From positions 434,001-498,000 of the forward strand of contig NZ_JACHMN010000002.1 in assembly GCF_014204945.1 (NCBI RefSeq): a DNA stretch of 64,000 nt. The letters are read 5' to 3'. The notes under the pieces were generated by a model that was not told the DNA's origin, ran no database searches, and was given only the letters and a program-made list of their open reading frames with translations. Numbering within the stretch: the first letter of the stretch is position 1; each line of letters begins with the position of its first letter. Both the position numbers and the translations under genes were made by a program. This document shows positions 28,162-34,994 of the stretch, one piece after another. The DNA is from Allocatelliglobosispora scoriae. Lineage in GTDB: Bacteria > Actinomycetota > Actinomycetes > Mycobacteriales > Micromonosporaceae.

Positions 28162-28686
28162 GTGGGTATCAGCACTCGACTCGTCGCGCTCGGTGACATC
28201 CCGGCCCTGACCGCGCTCCGGCTCGCGAACCGGGACTTCCTCGCGCCGTGGGAACCGGCCAGGACCGACGACTACTTCACCGTCGAGGCGCAGCACGCGG
28301 AGATCGCGACCGCGCTCGACCGGCATGAGCAGGGCATGACCGTGCCGCATGTCATCGTCGACGGCGAGCGCGTCGTCGGGCGGATCACGCTCAACGACAT
28401 CGTGCGGGGGCCGTTCCAGTCGTGCCACCTCGGCTATTGGGTCGGCCACGCCGACAACGGGCGCGGGGTGGCCTCGGCCGCGGTGCGGGAGATCGTCCGG
28501 GTCGCGTTCGGCGAGCTGGGGCTGCACCGCATTCAGGCGGGCACGCTGCTGCACAACACGGGCTCGCAGCGAGTGCTGGAGCGCAACGGTTTCGTGCGCT
28601 TCGGCATGGCGCCGAAGTACCTCAGCATCGCCGGCGCCTGGCAGGACCACTTCCTCTACCAGCTCATCGCCGACACCTCGGAGTGA
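28162..28686 (+). CDS. GNAT N-acetyltransferase (RimJ/RimL-like)
   Basis: 174 residues from GTG 28162 (VGISTRLVALGD). ATG 28135 would add nine residues that do not align with the fold. LRLANRDFLAPWEPAR at the N-terminus, the acetyl-CoA binding stretch VGHADNGRGVASAAVREIV and the C-terminal SQRVLERNGFVRFGMAP are the RimJ/RimL pattern, common to ribosomal-protein and antibiotic acetyltransferases. Transfers acetyl to an amino group; target unknown. Confidence 0.9.
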   Translation: MGISTRLVALGDIPALTALRLANRDFLAPWEPARTDDYFTVEAQHAEIATALDRHEQGMTVPHVIVDGERVVGRITLNDIVRGPFQSCHLGYWVGHADNGRGVASAAVREIVRVAFGELGLHRIQAGTLLHNTGSQRVLERNGFVRFGMAPKYLSIAGAWQDHFLYQLIADTSE

Positions 28687-28727: not shown

Positions 28728-30560
28728 ATGCCGAACGCCGTGCCCGGACCCGTCCCGGCAGATCTGGTCGGGGAGCTCTTCGACGCATCGCCGGCCGACG
28801 TCCTCTTCTGGTCCGGTGCCGGGATCTCGATGGTGGGGCCCAGCAGCCTGCCGACCGGGTGGGAGCTGACCAACCGCGCCTTCGAGTCCTTCTTCGACCC
28901 CGGCGCGCTAGATGTCGTCCTCGGCCATCATCGCCGGGCCGGCTGGCTCTCCCCGGAGATCTGCGATCGGGCGGGACCGGACGGAGTCCGGCCGCCGCGG
29001 CTGGAGACGGTGCTCGGGGTCGCGCTGCGGCGGTTGGGCACGCGGGCGCACGACGTGCTCGCCGATGTGCGCGAGGCGGTCCCCAACTGGAACCACGCTT
29101 TCTTCGCGGAGCACATCGCCGCAGGCGGGAAGCACGTCACCGCCAACTTCGACTCCTGTGTGGAGGATGCGTTCCAGGCCAGGTACGCGACCGAGCCGCC
29201 GGCTTCGGTCGAGCACTTCCACGGCCGGCTGACCGCCGGGACGAGCGTGGCGGAGCTCGGCGCGACACTCGACCGCATCCAGGCAGGCTTCGGCCCCGCC
29301 TACGCCGATGAACTGGTCGGCCTCGTCGCCGCCCGACCGCTCACGGTCATGGTCGGTTACAGCGGCGGCGACTTCTTCGACGTCGATGTCGCCTTCGACG
29401 GGCTCGCCGGTGATCGGCTGGCCGGGCGGGAGGTGGTGTGGCTCGCCCACCACCACGAGCACGCCTGGCACCTGGCACAGCCCGGGCCTGCGGCCGAGCC
29501 GCGGCTCGGCCGCAGGCTGGCCGCCGCCGGGGCCCGGGTGCGCTACCTCTGCGGACCGACACAGGTCCTGCTCTCGCACCTCGCCACGGCCTGGGGACTG
29601 CCGGTCGAGGCACCCGAGGCCACCGTGCGCAGCCCTCGGCGGATCGTGTCCGACACCACCTCGGCGCAACGCCGCACGGCCACCTTCGCGCTCTTCCGGG
29701 AGCTGGGAATTCCGGTCGAGGTGGACCGGATGCTGCACGAGGGCGACCTCGACGGGATCGGCGACGCCGACAGGTGGCTGTCCACCTCCGAGGTCCTGTG
29801 GGAGCAGGGCCGCTGGAGCACGCTGCGGCGGATGTGGCAACGCGCCGATCTGCCGGTCGGCATCAGCCCCGCACTCCGAGCGGAACGGATCGGCGCCTGC
29901 CTGTGGGCGCAGGGCCGCCTCCTCCCGGCCTACCTGTGGTTGGAGCGGCACCGGGCCGTGGCGGCCCGGCGGGGACGCCCCGACGACGCATGGCTGCTCG
30001 CCGAGACGCAGGCCCGGGTCGTGGAGCATATGGCCCGCACCCCGGATCTGCGATGGCTCGGCGGGCGGCTGGCGGCGCGGGCGGCGGCGCGGCTGGGCCG
30101 CCCTGAGCAGGCGGCCGGTGTGCACCTGTTCCGACGTCACACCGACCTCACGACGAGCCTCGCCGCCGTGGCGAGCGGCACGGCCAGATCCGGTGGGGTG
30201 GCACAGGAATCGCAGCGCTGGTTCACCGAGGCGGGCAGCCTGACGGCGGCGATCGCCTATGCCCACCGGGCGCTGCGCGACGGATACGACTCCGAGGCCG
30301 ACATCGACGAGACGTCCGCGAGGTACCGCGATCACCAGCGATGGGCGCTGTCCGTGGGCTCGCCGGCCGCCGCCTGGCGGATGATCCTGTTACCCGGCGC
30401 GGACAGGGTGTTCACCTTCCGCGAGACGGTCGCGGCGACGCTCGAGCTCGAGTACGGGCACTGGCACCGCGTCCGCATCCTGGGCAGATACGCCGTACTA
30501 CGGCTGCGCCGACGACGCAGCAGCCGACCGGTCCTGACGGCGGGCCGTCCGCGCAGATGA
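28728..30560 (+). CDS. SIR2-like domain protein with helical C-terminal half
   Basis: 610 residues. The SIR2-like NAD-binding domain covers about residues 20-290: FWSGAGISMVGPSSLPTGW (GAGIS at 30-34), TANFDSCVEDAF (N140, D142), EHFHGRL (H163) and MVGYSGGDFFDVD. This is the arrangement of the SIR2 proteins that degrade NAD+ in anti-phage systems such as ThsA and the DSR group, with the Asn and His of the active site apparently present. The C-terminal half (about 330-590) is helical and TPR-like, plausibly a sensing region. No signal or membrane segment. No partner gene abuts it on this strand. A defence role is inference. Confidence 0.85.
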   Translation: MPNAVPGPVPADLVGELFDASPADVLFWSGAGISMVGPSSLPTGWELTNRAFESFFDPGALDVVLGHHRRAGWLSPEICDRAGPDGVRPPRLETVLGVALRRLGTRAHDVLADVREAVPNWNHAFFAEHIAAGGKHVTANFDSCVEDAFQARYATEPPASVEHFHGRLTAGTSVAELGATLDRIQAGFGPAYADELVGLVAARPLTVMVGYSGGDFFDVDVAFDGLAGDRLAGREVVWLAHHHEHAWHLAQPGPAAEPRLGRRLAAAGARVRYLCGPTQVLLSHLATAWGLPVEAPEATVRSPRRIVSDTTSAQRRTATFALFRELGIPVEVDRMLHEGDLDGIGDADRWLSTSEVLWEQGRWSTLRRMWQRADLPVGISPALRAERIGACLWAQGRLLPAYLWLERHRAVAARRGRPDDAWLLAETQARVVEHMARTPDLRWLGGRLAARAAARLGRPEQAAGVHLFRRHTDLTTSLAAVASGTARSGGVAQESQRWFTEAGSLTAAIAYAHRALRDGYDSEADIDETSARYRDHQRWALSVGSPAAAWRMILLPGADRVFTFRETVAATLELEYGHWHRVRILGRYAVLRLRRRRSSRPVLTAGRPRR

Positions 30561-30575
30561 TGGCCTGTCGCCTGA

Positions 30576-30605
30576 TTGCCGGGCTCGACGGTGACCGAAT
30601 AGGGT
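30576..30605 (+). promoter_or_regulatory. Candidate promoter of the VLDTR-repeat protein
   Basis: TTGCCG (30576-30581) and TAGGGT (30600-30605) are separated by 18 bases, 38 bases before the TTG start codon; this fits a housekeeping-type promoter. Confidence 0.5.
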
Positions 30606-30642
30606 CCCCAACACCTGTCACACTCGACGAACGGGGATTTCG

Positions 30643-32031
30643 TTGCGCATCCTTCGTGGCCTGGTGGTGGGAGCCCTCGTGCTCGCGGCCACCCCACTCG
30701 CATCAGTGTCGGCGGCGTACGCCGCCGCACCCGGCTCCTCGCCGCTCCAGACGGCCGACATGCTCGACGCCAAAGGCACCTACTACTCGCTCTTCCCCCG
30801 CCGTGTGCTCGACACGCGGACCGGCACAGGCGCGCCGAAGGCGGTGGTGAAGCCCGGCGCCACGGTCCGCCTGCAGGTGGGAGGAGCCGGCGGTGTCCCC
30901 ACGACCGGCGTCGCGGCGGTGGCGGTCAACCTGACGGTGGTCGGGCCGACCAGCGCCGGTTACCTGACCGTCTTCCCCACCGGCGCGGCCAGGCCCAACG
31001 CCTCCTCGATCAATTTCGCCAAGGGCGAGACGCGCGCCAACTCCGTCATCGTCGCACTCGGCACCGACGGCAAGATCGACATCTTCAACGCGGTCGGGTC
31101 GACCCACATCCTGATCGATGTCGCTGGCTATTACGCCGACGCCACCCCGCTGCCGGACGGCGCGGCCGTCGGCGGCCAGCTCCACCCCGTCACACCGCAG
31201 CGCCTGATCGACACGCGCACGTCGTGGCACTCGATGCTGCCCGCCGGAGCGGCGGCGCGGGTGCTGATCGACTACGGTCCGGAGATCACTCCGCACATCC
31301 GCGGGGTCGTCGTCAACGTCACCGCCGTCACGCCGACGGCCGACGGATACCTGCAGGCGTGGAGCGGCGACTGGGGCGAGCAACCCACCCACTCGACCCT
31401 CAACTTCCGCAAGGGCTCCGTCGTGCCCAACCAGGCCATCGTGGGCACGGTCCCCTGCCTCGTCCTGATCTGCGGTGAGCCCGTCCGCCAGCAAATCATG
31501 GTCTGGACCAGCGCCGACACCCACGTGCTGGTCGACATCGTCGCGATCATCGACGATGGCACCCTCCCGGACGGGCTGCGTTTCGAGCCGCGTACGCCGA
31601 CGAGGATCGTCGACACCCGTACCGGGACCGGGCTGACCAAGGCACTCGGGCCGAACACCGCCGCGACGGTCAGCGTCCCGAACGCGTCGATCCCGGCGCA
31701 GACCAGGGCCATCGCGGTCAACGCGGCAGCCGTCGCACCCACCGCCGACACCTTCGTCACGCTCTGGCCGTGGTCGCCGGACGAAACCGGACGACCCGAC
31801 GTCAGCAGCCTCAACGCAGCCCGCGGGACGACGGTCGCCAACGCGGCGATCACGCCGATCGGGCCGGGCACCGGCTCCCCGAGCAACGCGTTCAACGTCT
31901 ACAACGCCACGGGGAACACCCACGTCCTGGTCGACCTCGTCGGCACGTTCTACCCCGGCACCGCGGCACCGGCCGCAACGGGTGCGGCGTACACCCTGAT
32001 TCCGCATCCAGCGGTGCTGCAGCAGCGCTGA
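30643..32031 (+). CDS. Secreted protein with three VLDTR-type repeats
   Basis: 462 residues from TTG 30643 with ACGGGGA upstream. A signal peptide ends near SAAYA. The mature protein contains three copies of a roughly 140-residue beta-rich domain, each opening with a RVLDTR / RLIDTR / RIVDTR motif (FPRRVLDTRTGTG, TPQRLIDTRT, TPTRIVDTRTGTG) and closing with HVLVDLVGTFYPG-like strands. This domain is widespread in secreted actinobacterial proteins, frequently attached to cell-wall hydrolases, and its function is unknown; adhesion or surface binding is the usual guess. Here it occurs alone. A hairpin terminator follows at 32041. Confidence 0.85.
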   Translation: MRILRGLVVGALVLAATPLASVSAAYAAAPGSSPLQTADMLDAKGTYYSLFPRRVLDTRTGTGAPKAVVKPGATVRLQVGGAGGVPTTGVAAVAVNLTVVGPTSAGYLTVFPTGAARPNASSINFAKGETRANSVIVALGTDGKIDIFNAVGSTHILIDVAGYYADATPLPDGAAVGGQLHPVTPQRLIDTRTSWHSMLPAGAAARVLIDYGPEITPHIRGVVVNVTAVTPTADGYLQAWSGDWGEQPTHSTLNFRKGSVVPNQAIVGTVPCLVLICGEPVRQQIMVWTSADTHVLVDIVAIIDDGTLPDGLRFEPRTPTRIVDTRTGTGLTKALGPNTAATVSVPNASIPAQTRAIAVNAAAVAPTADTFVTLWPWSPDETGRPDVSSLNAARGTTVANAAITPIGPGTGSPSNAFNVYNATGNTHVLVDLVGTFYPGTAAPAATGAAYTLIPHPAVLQQR

Positions 32032-32040
32032 GATCGGGTG

Positions 32041-32073
32041 GTCGCGCCGGCAGGCGGCACCTGCCGGCACGAC
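32041..32073. terminator. Hairpin between convergent genes
   Basis: A 14-bp stem with one mismatch (32041-32054 with 32060-32073) lies ten bases past the stop of the VLDTR protein gene and before the stop of the coiled-coil protein gene; it could serve both. Confidence 0.65.
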
Positions 32074-32109
32074 CGCCCGCGCTGGGGATGCGGCGTAGCC
32101 CGCCGCCCG

Positions 32110-32838
32110 CTACGCCTTCTGCCACACGATGACGTCGGCCATGAATCCGTCGTCGGTCAGCTTCACTATTTTGAGGAAGGAAGACCTGTTTCCTCTCGTG
32201 AAGAAGCAGAATGTCATTCCGGCCCTGGGCTCCTCGGCGACCGTAGAACCGCCCAATGCCTGAGTCGACGTCAGCAGAGCGCATTGGTCACGAGTGGGAA
32301 CGGCATCGGATTCCCACAGTGCCGCCTCTGTCCCGGGGTTCGTGATCAGGGCTGTGCCGTAGAAGGACTGCCGAATGTCTCCGCCAGAGCTCCCGCTGCG
32401 GGGAGGCACCGAGTCCAGATCCATACCCGAACCGGTGATCCTCAGCGTTCCCTGCCACCGGACCGATGCGGCGGACCTGATCGGGGAAGGGCTGGCCGAG
32501 GCTGCCGGAGAATCCGGTGCGGAGCTTGTCGGAGAGTCCGGTGCCGGAACCGTGAGGCGCTCGTTCTCCCGACGCAGAGCGGCGTTGTCCTCCTCCAATC
32601 GGCTGACCCGTTCATTCAGGGCGTCCGCAGCCTCACCCTGTTTCGCGCTCTCGTCGGATCCGAAGAGGCCGAGTGCGGCTGACAGCAGGATGAAGACCGC
32701 GGCGATCACCGCGAGGACCGCCACGAACTTGCCGGCATGCCGCTCAAGCAGTGGTCTCGGGACCGGCACAGGCTGCCTCAACCCATGGAACGGCTCAGCC
32801 GGAACCGGCTGCCTCGACTCCTGGAATGACTCCGACAT
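32110..32838 (-). CDS. Single-pass membrane protein with coiled coil
   Basis: 242 residues from ATG 32838. A cytoplasmic N-terminus with duplicated ESRQPVPAEPF / GLRQPVPVPRPL stretches is followed by one membrane segment (about residues 41-62). A short leucine-zipper-like coiled coil (ALNERVSRLEEDNAALRREN) comes next, then a Pro/Ser linker. The exterior domain (about 130-242) has two Cys residues (DQCALLT, MTFCFF) and beta-strand character. No family recognised. It lies 246 bases downstream of the TIR gene on the same strand, so a shared transcript is possible but there is ample room for its own promoter. Confidence 0.75.
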   Translation of the reverse strand: MSESFQESRQPVPAEPFHGLRQPVPVPRPLLERHAGKFVAVLAVIAAVFILLSAALGLFGSDESAKQGEAADALNERVSRLEEDNAALRRENERLTVPAPDSPTSSAPDSPAASASPSPIRSAASVRWQGTLRITGSGMDLDSVPPRSGSSGGDIRQSFYGTALITNPGTEAALWESDAVPTRDQCALLTSTQALGGSTVAEEPRAGMTFCFFTRGNRSSFLKIVKLTDDGFMADVIVWQKA

Positions 32839-33083
32839 GGGGGTGACCTTTCCCGAGAAACGACGGAAACGGCGAGCCGCGCTCATCCCCAATAGGCGAT
32901 GCGGATGCGCGCGACCCGCCAATCACGCTATTGCGCCCGCCATTCATCGCCGTCGCCCGCGCGGCCACTTCGTCGCCCTCAAGCGGTATGGCCGCCCAAC
33001 AAAGGTGCACAAACGCCCGACGATCAATGGGGTTTTGCGATGACGCCCGGCCGGTACCCGGGTTCGGGAACGGAATTCGTCCG

Positions 33084-34994
33084 TCAGAGTATCGTTCCGC
33101 TGATGTAGAGGGCCGTCAGAGCGCCGAACGCCAGCGGGACGCTAAACCGCAGAAGTGTCGGCGCGACCGCGGGCAGCTGTCCCGCTCGCCGCCTCGGCCA
33201 CTGGTCCGGCAGCCAGGCGGCGAGCCGCGGCGCGCTCCCGATGCCGTAGACGAACACCCCGGCGGCGAGCAGGCTCTCGAAGAGCAGCAGCCCCGATCCG
33301 GGCTCCTCGCTGCGCCACCCCAGCAACAGCCACGTTCCGGTGACGATCGCGCTGAAGAGGACGAGGGTACTCAGTCCGGTCAGGGTGATCCGCCGCGCAC
33401 CGAGCCGCCGGGCACCCCACAGGAGCAGCGGGCAGAGGACGGCGGCGAGCCCGGCCCGGATCCGCAGCAGCTGGTCGGCGTCCGCGGCGGTCTCGTGGAC
33501 GTAGTTGGGGTTGGCCACGTTGTAGCGGCGATCGGCCGGGTTGGGGACGGTCGGCATCACGCCGTGCTGGATGTTGCGCCACATCGACTCCGGCGCGACG
33601 ACGCTGACCGAGAGGATCGCCGAGCTGCCCAGTACGGCGCCCATCGCGATCATGAAGGCGACGAGGAAGCGCACCGGGGTCGGCGCGGCGAACCGGTCGA
33701 TCGCCCGGGGCGGCGACGACTGGACGGGCGCCGCCGAGCTCCGGAGCACGGCGGCCCGGCTGCGCAGCCGCTCGGTGTCGCCGTCGCGGAAGTCCAGCCA
33801 CTGCACGAGCTGGAGCTCGTCGGCGTCGGCCGGTGGGCGTACGCTGCCGACGAGCACGGCCACCGACGGCCCGGACCGCAGCAGGCCGCGCGCCCACTCC
33901 CAGGAGGTCGCGCCGCTGATGACGACGACTCGCAGGTCAGGCTCGCCCTTGGCGTGGACCGACCAGACGGGGGCGAAGGCCTTCGTCACCTCTTCCGCGA
34001 CGGGAGTGTCGCCGATGGCGTGGTAGACCGCGATCCGCTGGGACCGCCGGACCCGGGTGGTGGGCGGACGGGGGTTCCCGGCCGGTCGCAGGGCGCGGCG
34101 GCGCAGCCAGCCGGGAGCCTCGCCCGCGGGTATCCACCGGAAGACGGAGCGGGAGAAGCAGAGGCAGCCGACGGCGGCGAGGTTCATCAGGATGAGCAGC
34201 AGCGAGGCGAGGGCGAAGTAGACGTCGCCGCGCGAGGTCGCGTCGGTGAGCCGCAGGTTGCGGTCGAGGCTGCCGTGGTCGGCGGCCTCGACGACGGCGT
34301 TGATCAGGCCGCCCGCGAGCTGGTAGACGCTCAGCCCGGTGAGCAGCGCCGCGAGCAGCAGTCCGAACCGCACCCGCCGTCGCCGGAAGCGGTGCCGGAT
34401 GACCCCGGCATAGGCGGCCAGTGCGATCGCGACGGCCGGTGCGGCGACCCCTCGCGCGGCCTCCCACCACTGCATGTGGTCCCAGCTCACCTCCTCGATG
34501 GCGAGGTCGATCGGGTAGAGCACGAGGTTGCCGACGATCGCGAGCAGGTTGACGGTGAGCGCGGCGAGGATGACCAGGATGGGTACGGGGTAGCGGATCC
34601 CCCGGCTGGAGGCGCGCGGGATCGGCTTCCCCCCGAGGAGGTTTCGACCGAAGGTCGCGGCGCGCTTCTCGAAGCGGCGGCGCAGGTCGACGACGCCGGC
34701 GAGACCACCGGGGAGATCGCACGCCTCGACCACCGCCGCGTGGACCGGCACCTGCGCCTCGATCGCACCGAGGAGCTCCTGGTGGACGTGGGGCGAGTTC
34801 AGCGAGTCGGACGAGGCGAGCAGGACCATGGCGTCGGCGGAGGTGATCGCCTCCTCGATGAGGTGCGCCCAGTCCATTCCGGGGACGAGCCGTTCGGCAT
34901 CGAACCACACATCGATGCCCTGCGCTGTCAGGATCGCCGCGAGCTGCTCGGCTGCGGAGAACTGCTGGCGGGAGTAGGCCAGGAATACGCGCAT
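33084..34994 (-). CDS. TIR-domain multi-pass membrane protein
   Basis: 636 residues. The N-terminal 95 residues are a TIR domain: MRVFLAYSRQQFSAAEQLAA, GIDVWFDAERLVPGMDW, ADAMVLLASSDSLNSPHVH and QEL with E73 in the place of the catalytic Glu of TIR NADases. Four membrane segments follow (about 140-285). A second cytosolic alpha/beta domain (about 310-430; IAVYHAIGDTPVAEEV, RVVVISGATSWEWARGLL) looks like a degenerate TIR or flavodoxin-like fold. About five more membrane segments finish the chain. TIR plus many membrane spans is unusual; a signalling or defence role is inference. Confidence 0.85.
   Translation of the reverse strand: MRVFLAYSRQQFSAAEQLAAILTAQGIDVWFDAERLVPGMDWAHLIEEAITSADAMVLLASSDSLNSPHVHQELLGAIEAQVPVHAAVVEACDLPGGLAGVVDLRRRFEKRAATFGRNLLGGKPIPRASSRGIRYPVPILVILAALTVNLLAIVGNLVLYPIDLAIEEVSWDHMQWWEAARGVAAPAVAIALAAYAGVIRHRFRRRRVRFGLLLAALLTGLSVYQLAGGLINAVVEAADHGSLDRNLRLTDATSRGDVYFALASLLLILMNLAAVGCLCFSRSVFRWIPAGEAPGWLRRRALRPAGNPRPPTTRVRRSQRIAVYHAIGDTPVAEEVTKAFAPVWSVHAKGEPDLRVVVISGATSWEWARGLLRSGPSVAVLVGSVRPPADADELQLVQWLDFRDGDTERLRSRAAVLRSSAAPVQSSPPRAIDRFAAPTPVRFLVAFMIAMGAVLGSSAILSVSVVAPESMWRNIQHGVMPTVPNPADRRYNVANPNYVHETAADADQLLRIRAGLAAVLCPLLLWGARRLGARRITLTGLSTLVLFSAIVTGTWLLLGWRSEEPGSGLLLFESLLAAGVFVYGIGSAPRLAAWLPDQWPRRRAGQLPAVAPTLLRFSVPLAFGALTALYISGTIL

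What the first reader, a model, noticed from the sequence alone, without database searches (positions are those of the whole stretch)
28728..34994. SIR2-like and TIR proteins within 6 kb: a possible NAD-depleting defence region
Both domains are used as NAD+ hydrolases in anti-phage systems, and both here keep their likely catalytic residues (N140/H163; E73). The SIR2 protein has a long helical C-terminal half. The TIR protein is embedded by about nine membrane spans, a layout I do not match to Thoeris, CBASS or Gabija. Between them lie a surface repeat protein and a coiled-coil membrane protein. They are on opposite strands, so one system is not proven, but each deserves testing.
Basis: inference. 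Interest (0 to 1): 0.65.

Follow-up and report, generated by a model that had tools for sequence, protein, structure and literature searches.

The report
Orphan SIR2 NADase beside unrelated TIR
An actinomycete-type bacterium carries a rare, uncharacterised sirtuin-like protein that probably destroys the cell metabolite NAD when triggered, perhaps to stop viruses; the TIR protein found nearby is most likely a separate gene and not its partner.

Summary
Both proteins are really there. The TIR gene (33084-34994, -) has a clear Pfam TIR_2 domain with E73 intact and about 8-9 membrane spans. The SIR2 gene (28728-30560, +) is missed by Pfam, NCBIfam and PADLOC. But 20 relatives keep GAGxS, N140, D142, the second His of HFHG (H165 rather than H163) and GYSG-D, and an AlphaFold model (pLDDT 87) places residues 5-290 with defence SIR2 NADases (SPARSA, ThsA, DSR2, Kom, Avs5; Z 15-18), followed by a TPR-like helical half. 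One SIR2-TIR system is not supported: convergent genes 2.5 kb apart, the TIR's membrane half has no relative in 398 other genomes, and this genome has 26 TIR domains (about 3% chance of one within 6 kb). TIR genes lie near 2 of about 21 SIR2 relatives, with other architectures. The better lead is the SIR2 family itself: in close relatives the gene is usually coupled to or grouped with a membrane protein bearing an exchangeable soluble domain: PLD-like (7 loci), VWA module (4), or macro plus ADPR-pyrophosphatase NUDIX (1). The window copy has no such partner. Best reading: a stand-alone, DSR-like SIR2-TPR NADase, probably abortive-infection defence (function inferred).

The parts
28728..30560 (+). 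SIR2-TPR-like protein, 610 aa
   Evidence: ORF; 20 homologues aligned; AlphaFold2 pLDDT 86.8, pTM 0.87
28728..29597 (+). SIR2 NADase domain, residues 1-290 (GAGIS at 30-34, N140, D142, H163/H165, GYSGGD 210-215)
   Evidence: VIA-align Z 15-18 with SPARSA, ThsA, DSR2, Kom, Avs5 over residues 5-290; invariant motifs
29661..30524 (+). all-helical TPR-like repeat half, residues 312-599 (presumed sensor)
   Evidence: DSSP on model; Foldseek and VIA matches to TPR superhelices, MalT domain III, APC5, DSR2 C-terminus
28162..28686 (+). GNAT acetyltransferase 41 nt upstream of the SIR2 gene; sits where relatives carry the membrane partner; not shown to belong
   Evidence: Pfam Acetyltransf_3 E 1.4e-20; gene calls; no PLD-like partner homologue in this genome
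30643..32031 (+). secreted repeat protein, probably unrelated
   Evidence: signal-like N-terminus and three repeats of a VLDTR..DVAGYY type; no Pfam match
32110..32844 (-). TM + coiled-coil + extracytoplasmic domain protein, probably unrelated
   Evidence: weak homologues of parts of it in 6 of 60 relatives
33084..34994 (-). TIR multi-span membrane protein, 636 aa
   Evidence: ORF; spans
34668..34988 (-). TIR_2 domain, residues 3-109, catalytic Glu E73
   Evidence: Pfam TIR_2 73 bits

Best explanation
The SIR2 gene encodes a stand-alone NAD+ glycohydrolase of the defence type: an N-terminal SIR2 domain (shown by conserved residues and a confident model) held inactive until its C-terminal TPR-like half recognises a trigger (inferred, by analogy with DSR2), after which it consumes NAD+ and stops the cell, most likely as abortive anti-phage defence (inferred). 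It belongs to a rare, so far unnamed family whose actinobacterial members are usually encoded with a membrane partner; the copy in the window has none and is likely a derived solo form. The TIR membrane protein is a separate gene: probably an NAD+-cleaving or TIR-scaffold membrane protein, one of about 26 TIR proteins in this genome, next to the SIR2 gene largely by chance.
For: SIR2 motifs invariant in 21 homologues; model residues 5-290 match SPARSA SIR2 Z 17.9, BcThsA 17.4, DSR2 17.3, SeThsA 16.2, KomBC 15.5, Avs5 14.9, and by Foldseek all 25 hits below E 1e-3 are DSR2 chains; helical half present. NAD/ADPR theme in relatives: G003 has an ADPR-pyrophosphatase-type NUDIX (TIGR00052, 108.9 bits, cut-off 79.6) - TM-macro (Pfam Macro E 1.8e-7) - SIR2 with 4-nt overlaps; NrtR-type NUDIX regulators lie near others. 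Some relatives sit beside defence genes: Wadjet JetA/JetC and a ThsA-like SIR2 in G374, another ThsA-like SIR2 in G273, a candidate defence FRG gene (PDC-S15) in Leifsonia. Rarity and patchy spread: 5 of 399 genomes of the order. The SIR2 and TIR genes are convergent, the TIR membrane half has no relative in the other 398 genomes searched, and the genome has 26 TIR_2 domains.
Against: No activity, phage phenotype or expression was measured. The window locus is not a defence island. PADLOC has no model that matches it. Relatives L043-L049 and G254 also lack a recognised partner, so 'partner lost' depends on the tree, in which the sister relation to G003 is only moderately supported (85/95). The SIR2 could instead be a metabolic or regulatory NAD enzyme.
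Confidence: 0.6

Rival explanations
1. The two genes form one Thoeris-like system: the membrane TIR makes an ADPR-type signal that switches on the SIR2 NADase.
For: Both domains within 6 kb, active-site residues kept; in G003, the nearest relative, a TIR + PNP_UDP protein lies divergent from the NUDIX-TM-macro-SIR2 operon.
Against: Opposite strands, two unrelated genes between; the second half of the SIR2 protein is TPR-like, not SLOG or another nucleotide sensor; TIR near only 2 of about 21 SIR2 relatives and of different architecture; 26 TIRs in the genome make the proximity about a 3% chance event.
Confidence: 0.1
2. The SIR2 protein is the enzyme of a membrane-coupled system (SIR2 + membrane partner) and the window copy is a non-functional orphan that lost its partner.
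For: Close relatives are coupled by 4-nt overlap to a 2TM-PLD-like protein (L034, L036-L039, G273; L041 3 nt apart), or sit with a VWA module (G374, L033, L035, L040) or TM-macro (G003); no PLD-like partner anywhere in the window genome; window groups with the macro-coupled G003.
Against: The gene is intact with conserved residues and no stops, so no sign of decay; solo members exist.
Confidence: 0.15
3. The SIR2 protein is not defence but a regulated NAD or protein-modification enzyme (deacylase or ADP-ribosyltransferase) of cell physiology.
For: NrtR and NUDIX neighbours also fit NAD homeostasis; the GNAT upstream could acylate what a sirtuin deacylates.
Against: Fold matches favour defence NADases over canonical sirtuins (best canonical row, 1ici, Z 13.7 against 15-18); rare, patchy distribution; the GNAT is not seen next to the gene in the relatives.
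Confidence: 0.15

Closest known systems
DSR2 (defence-associated sirtuin 2)
   Same: N-terminal SIR2 NADase followed by a long helical half; best Foldseek family (E 1.3e-5)
   Different: 610 aa instead of about 1000; about 10-13% identity; no PADLOC DSR match; trigger unknown; relatives carry a membrane partner
Thoeris type I (ThsA SIR2-SLOG + ThsB TIR)
   Same: SIR2 domain fold Z 17.4 with BcThsA; a TIR gene nearby
   Different: no SLOG-like half, TIR is a convergent multi-span membrane protein, no conserved pairing
Thoeris type II (TM-macro ThsA + TIR ThsB; PMC11204291)
   Same: relative G003 couples a TM-macro protein to this SIR2, as type II couples TM-macro to a TIR
   Different: the co-encoded enzyme is SIR2 instead of TIR; the window itself has no TM-macro beside it
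SPARSA (SIR2-APAZ + short pAgo)
   Same: SIR2 domain, best Z 17.9
   Different: no pAgo seen beside the window gene; C-terminal half is TPR-like
Macro-sirtuin pairs and NUDIX-TF/vWA ADPr conflict operons (reviewed in PMC9503650)
   Same: macro, NUDIX, NrtR and VWA genes around SIR2 relatives
   Different: the operons described there centre on ARG domains; this SIR2-TPR family and its PLD-like 2TM partner were not found in the passages read

Membership tests
SIR2 (defence-type NADase domain) | SIR2 Rossmann fold with GAGxS, catalytic Asn and His | tested here: met
   invariant residues; fold
Pfam SIR2_2 (PF13289) | score over curated cut-off 24.5 bits | tested here: not met
   no match for the window protein; relatives 15-16 bits only
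DSR2 | SIR2 domain followed by a long helical half | tested here: met
DSR2 | match to curated DSR models | tested here: not met
   PADLOC, 21 family members scanned
DSR2 | activation by phage tail tube protein | not testable with these tools
   needs experiment
Thoeris type I | ThsA C-terminal SLOG domain | tested here: not met
   C-terminal half is all-helical, TPR-like
Thoeris type I | ThsB TIR gene in the same operon | tested here: not met
   TIR gene convergent, 2.5 kb away, with two genes between
Thoeris (ThsB-type TIR) | TIR protein over curated ThsB-type cut-off | tested here: not met
   ThcB4 30.6 bits against 220; PADLOC ThsB 25 bits over the TIR domain only
TIR_2 domain proteins | TIR domain over cut-off with catalytic Glu | tested here: met
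   73 bits against 28; E73
SPARSA | APAZ domain and adjacent pAgo | tested here: not met
   no pAgo among the gene calls next to the SIR2 gene; the C-terminal half is a helical repeat
anti-phage defence in general | protects from phage | not testable with these tools
   needs experiment

The most novel reading that the evidence does not exclude
An unnamed SIR2-TPR family works with a swappable membrane partner (2TM-PLD-like, TM-VWA or TM-macro): the SIR2 enzyme is triggered through its TPR half and its ADP-ribose-type product, or the enzyme itself, opens or recruits the membrane partner, that is, a type II Thoeris logic with SIR2 in place of TIR; the window holds a solo branch of it.
Probability: 0.3. 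Interest if true: 0.65.

Novelty: new variant of a known kind. Interest (0 to 1): 0.4.

Why it matters
SIR2 NADases are among the main executioners of bacterial abortive infection. A family that current defence databases do not recognise, with a helical presumed sensor and exchangeable membrane partners surrounded by ADP-ribose-handling genes, would extend the list of such systems and would link the Thoeris TM-macro idea to SIR2 enzymes. The window copy itself, without partner, is a simple single-gene test case.

Tried and rejected
A second, degenerate TIR in the soluble middle of the TIR protein (residues 296-435) was suspected from its sequence; profile comparison with the genome's other TIRs gave no support (hhalign probability 0.4), nor did comparison with the PLD-like partner or the macro domain. 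Searches of plasmids and phages found no relative of the SIR2 protein; a plasmid search with the TIR protein found one TIR-domain match only. The PLD-like partner is absent from the window genome; the macro homologue in this genome is a TIR-macro fusion elsewhere, not next to the SIR2 gene. Eight relatives with the flanking GH3 gene show no GNAT-SIR2-TIR block beside it, so no clean empty site could be read. The coiled-coil protein showed no sign of a link to TIR or SIR2. Catalytic HKD residues were looked for in the PLD-like partner and not found in five of six; the sixth match is not conserved. A rough gene caller was used, so starts are approximate.

Full report
What was claimed. A SIR2-like protein and a TIR membrane protein lie within 6 kb and might form an NAD-depleting defence region.

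Observation. Both reading frames exist and look like real genes. The TIR protein has a clear TIR_2 domain at residues 3-109 (73 bits, cut-off 28). E73 sits where the conserved glutamate of the other TIRs in this genome sits. Hydrophobicity gives four membrane spans, a soluble stretch of about 160 residues, then four or more spans. The SIR2 protein matches nothing in Pfam, NCBIfam or PADLOC, so its identity had to be shown otherwise. Whole-genome and contig searches gave 20 usable relatives. In all 21 sequences G30-A31-G32-x-S34, N140, D142, H165 and G210-Y-S-G plus D215 are invariant. By analogy with the HG motif of sirtuins (own knowledge) H165 is the more likely catalytic residue. An AlphaFold2 model from 16 sequences is confident (pLDDT 86.8, pTM 0.87). 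Residues 5-290 match defence SIR2 domains (SPARSA Z 17.9, BcThsA 17.4, DSR2 17.3, SeThsA 16.2, Kom 15.5, Avs5 14.9), ahead of a canonical sirtuin (13.7). By Foldseek all hits under E 1e-3 are DSR2. Residues 312-599 form a TPR-like helical repeat.

Are the two genes one system? The evidence says probably not. They are convergent with two unrelated genes between. The genome has 26 TIR_2 domains; about 0.034 would fall within 6 kb of any one place, so the closeness is mildly unusual but it was picked out after the fact. The membrane half of the TIR protein has no relative in the other 398 genomes of the order searched. In the SIR2 relatives, a TIR domain lies nearby in only two: in G003, where a 708-aa TIR + PNP_UDP protein is divergent from the operon, and about 5 kb away in Hungatella. 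The G003 protein is not a membrane TIR of this kind; the Hungatella one was not studied further. Of ten other window genes tested none is a convincing defence gene (only a TPR match and a short, weak CARF-model match).

What the SIR2 family shows. Gene calls around the relatives reveal a repeated layout. In Streptomyces (L034, L036-L039) and in G273 the SIR2 start codon overlaps by 4 nt the stop of an upstream gene for a membrane protein with one or two predicted spans; in a Streptosporangiaceae MAG (L041) the two are 3 nt apart. These seven partners align and match no Pfam family above its cut-off. A moderate AlphaFold model (pLDDT 70 overall, most of the soluble part 80-95) places the soluble domain in the phospholipase D-like fold, nearest TrmB-type domains, NucT and FAM83B (Z 11-12), without a conserved HKD motif. 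So it is more likely a binding domain than an enzyme (inference). In G374, Nocardia and Amycolatopsis the SIR2 gene sits with a VWA protein and, in most, a further membrane protein and an NrtR-type NUDIX gene (in Amycolatopsis this module is on the opposite strand, in N. amamiensis only a VWA fragment is left). In G003 an ADPR-pyrophosphatase-type NUDIX (TIGR00052, above cut-off), a TM-macro protein (Pfam Macro) and the SIR2 gene overlap by 4 nt each. NUDIX, macro and NrtR are ADP-ribose-handling modules (PMC9503650), which fits an NAD+-consuming SIR2. Wadjet genes and ThsA-like SIR2 genes lie near members. More distant members and G254 appear without a recognised partner.

The window copy. 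Upstream of it lies a GNAT gene, 41 nt away, not seen beside the relatives. No PLD-like partner exists anywhere in this genome. In the tree the window protein joins G003 (85/95, not decisive), inside the mostly partner-carrying actinobacterial set. So the window most likely holds a solo form that lost, or never needed, a partner. Its reading frame and active site are intact.

Mechanism, with what is shown and what is inferred. Shown: SIR2 fold (predicted with confidence) and conserved active site; helical C-terminal half; coupling to membrane proteins in relatives; ADPR-related neighbours. Inferred: NAD+ glycohydrolase activity; activation through the helical half as in DSR2; abortive infection; any link between product and membrane partner. 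The TIR protein is inferred to be a membrane TIR of unknown trigger, separate from the SIR2.

Comparison with known systems. It works most like DSR2 (SIR2 plus helical sensor) but is shorter, about 10-13% identical, and not caught by DSR models. It fails the tested Thoeris features (no SLOG half, no operon with a TIR). The G003 operon resembles type II Thoeris (TM-macro effector plus TIR; PMC11204291) with SIR2 in the place of TIR. My literature searches did not find this family described, but the library is partial and I read only passages.

Verdict. Observation confirmed with one residue corrected; joint-system idea not supported; the SIR2 gene is a member of a rare, unnamed SIR2-TPR family that deserves testing in its partner-carrying relatives more than in the window.

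Noticed in passing
L061:6925-18139 (G000:C1 about 72.9-84.1 kb): Same genome: a SIR2_2-TPR protein of about 1120-1147 aa flanked within about 6 kb on each side by TIR proteins (one with repeats, one with a membrane span), among transposase-like genes; a better candidate SIR2/TIR cluster than the window.
   Followed up: partly
G000 genome (loci L076-L101): 26 TIR_2 domains in one 9.15 Mb genome, several with membrane spans, others with TPR or WD40-like repeats.
   Followed up: partly
L136:4670-5803 (G000:C3 about 1.6847-1.6858 Mb): A TIR-macro fusion of about 377 aa with multi-span membrane genes nearby; looks like a fused Thoeris-type signalling pair.
   Followed up: partly
L138-L143: Macro domains fused to different N-terminal parts, in several relatives beside a multi-span membrane protein and a nucleosidase-like gene; a recurring uncharacterised actinobacterial module.
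   Followed up: no
L063:3839-6247, L064:4809-7250, L065:5830-7347: Distant PLD-like 2TM homologues beside NrtR-type NUDIX genes, two of them also beside a PNP_UDP gene, without a SIR2 gene of this family.
   Followed up: partly
L040:7986-17716 (Amycolatopsis eburnea): Three SIR2-type genes in a row followed by VWA, membrane and NrtR-type genes on the opposite strand.
   Followed up: no
L062:3027-6308 (G084): SIR2_2 gene, a P-loop (STAND-like) gene and a PLD-like 2TM partner in one row, so the partner also occurs with a different SIR2.
   Followed up: partly
window 30643-32031: Secreted protein of three tandem VLDTR...DVAGYY-type repeats without a Pfam match.
   Followed up: no
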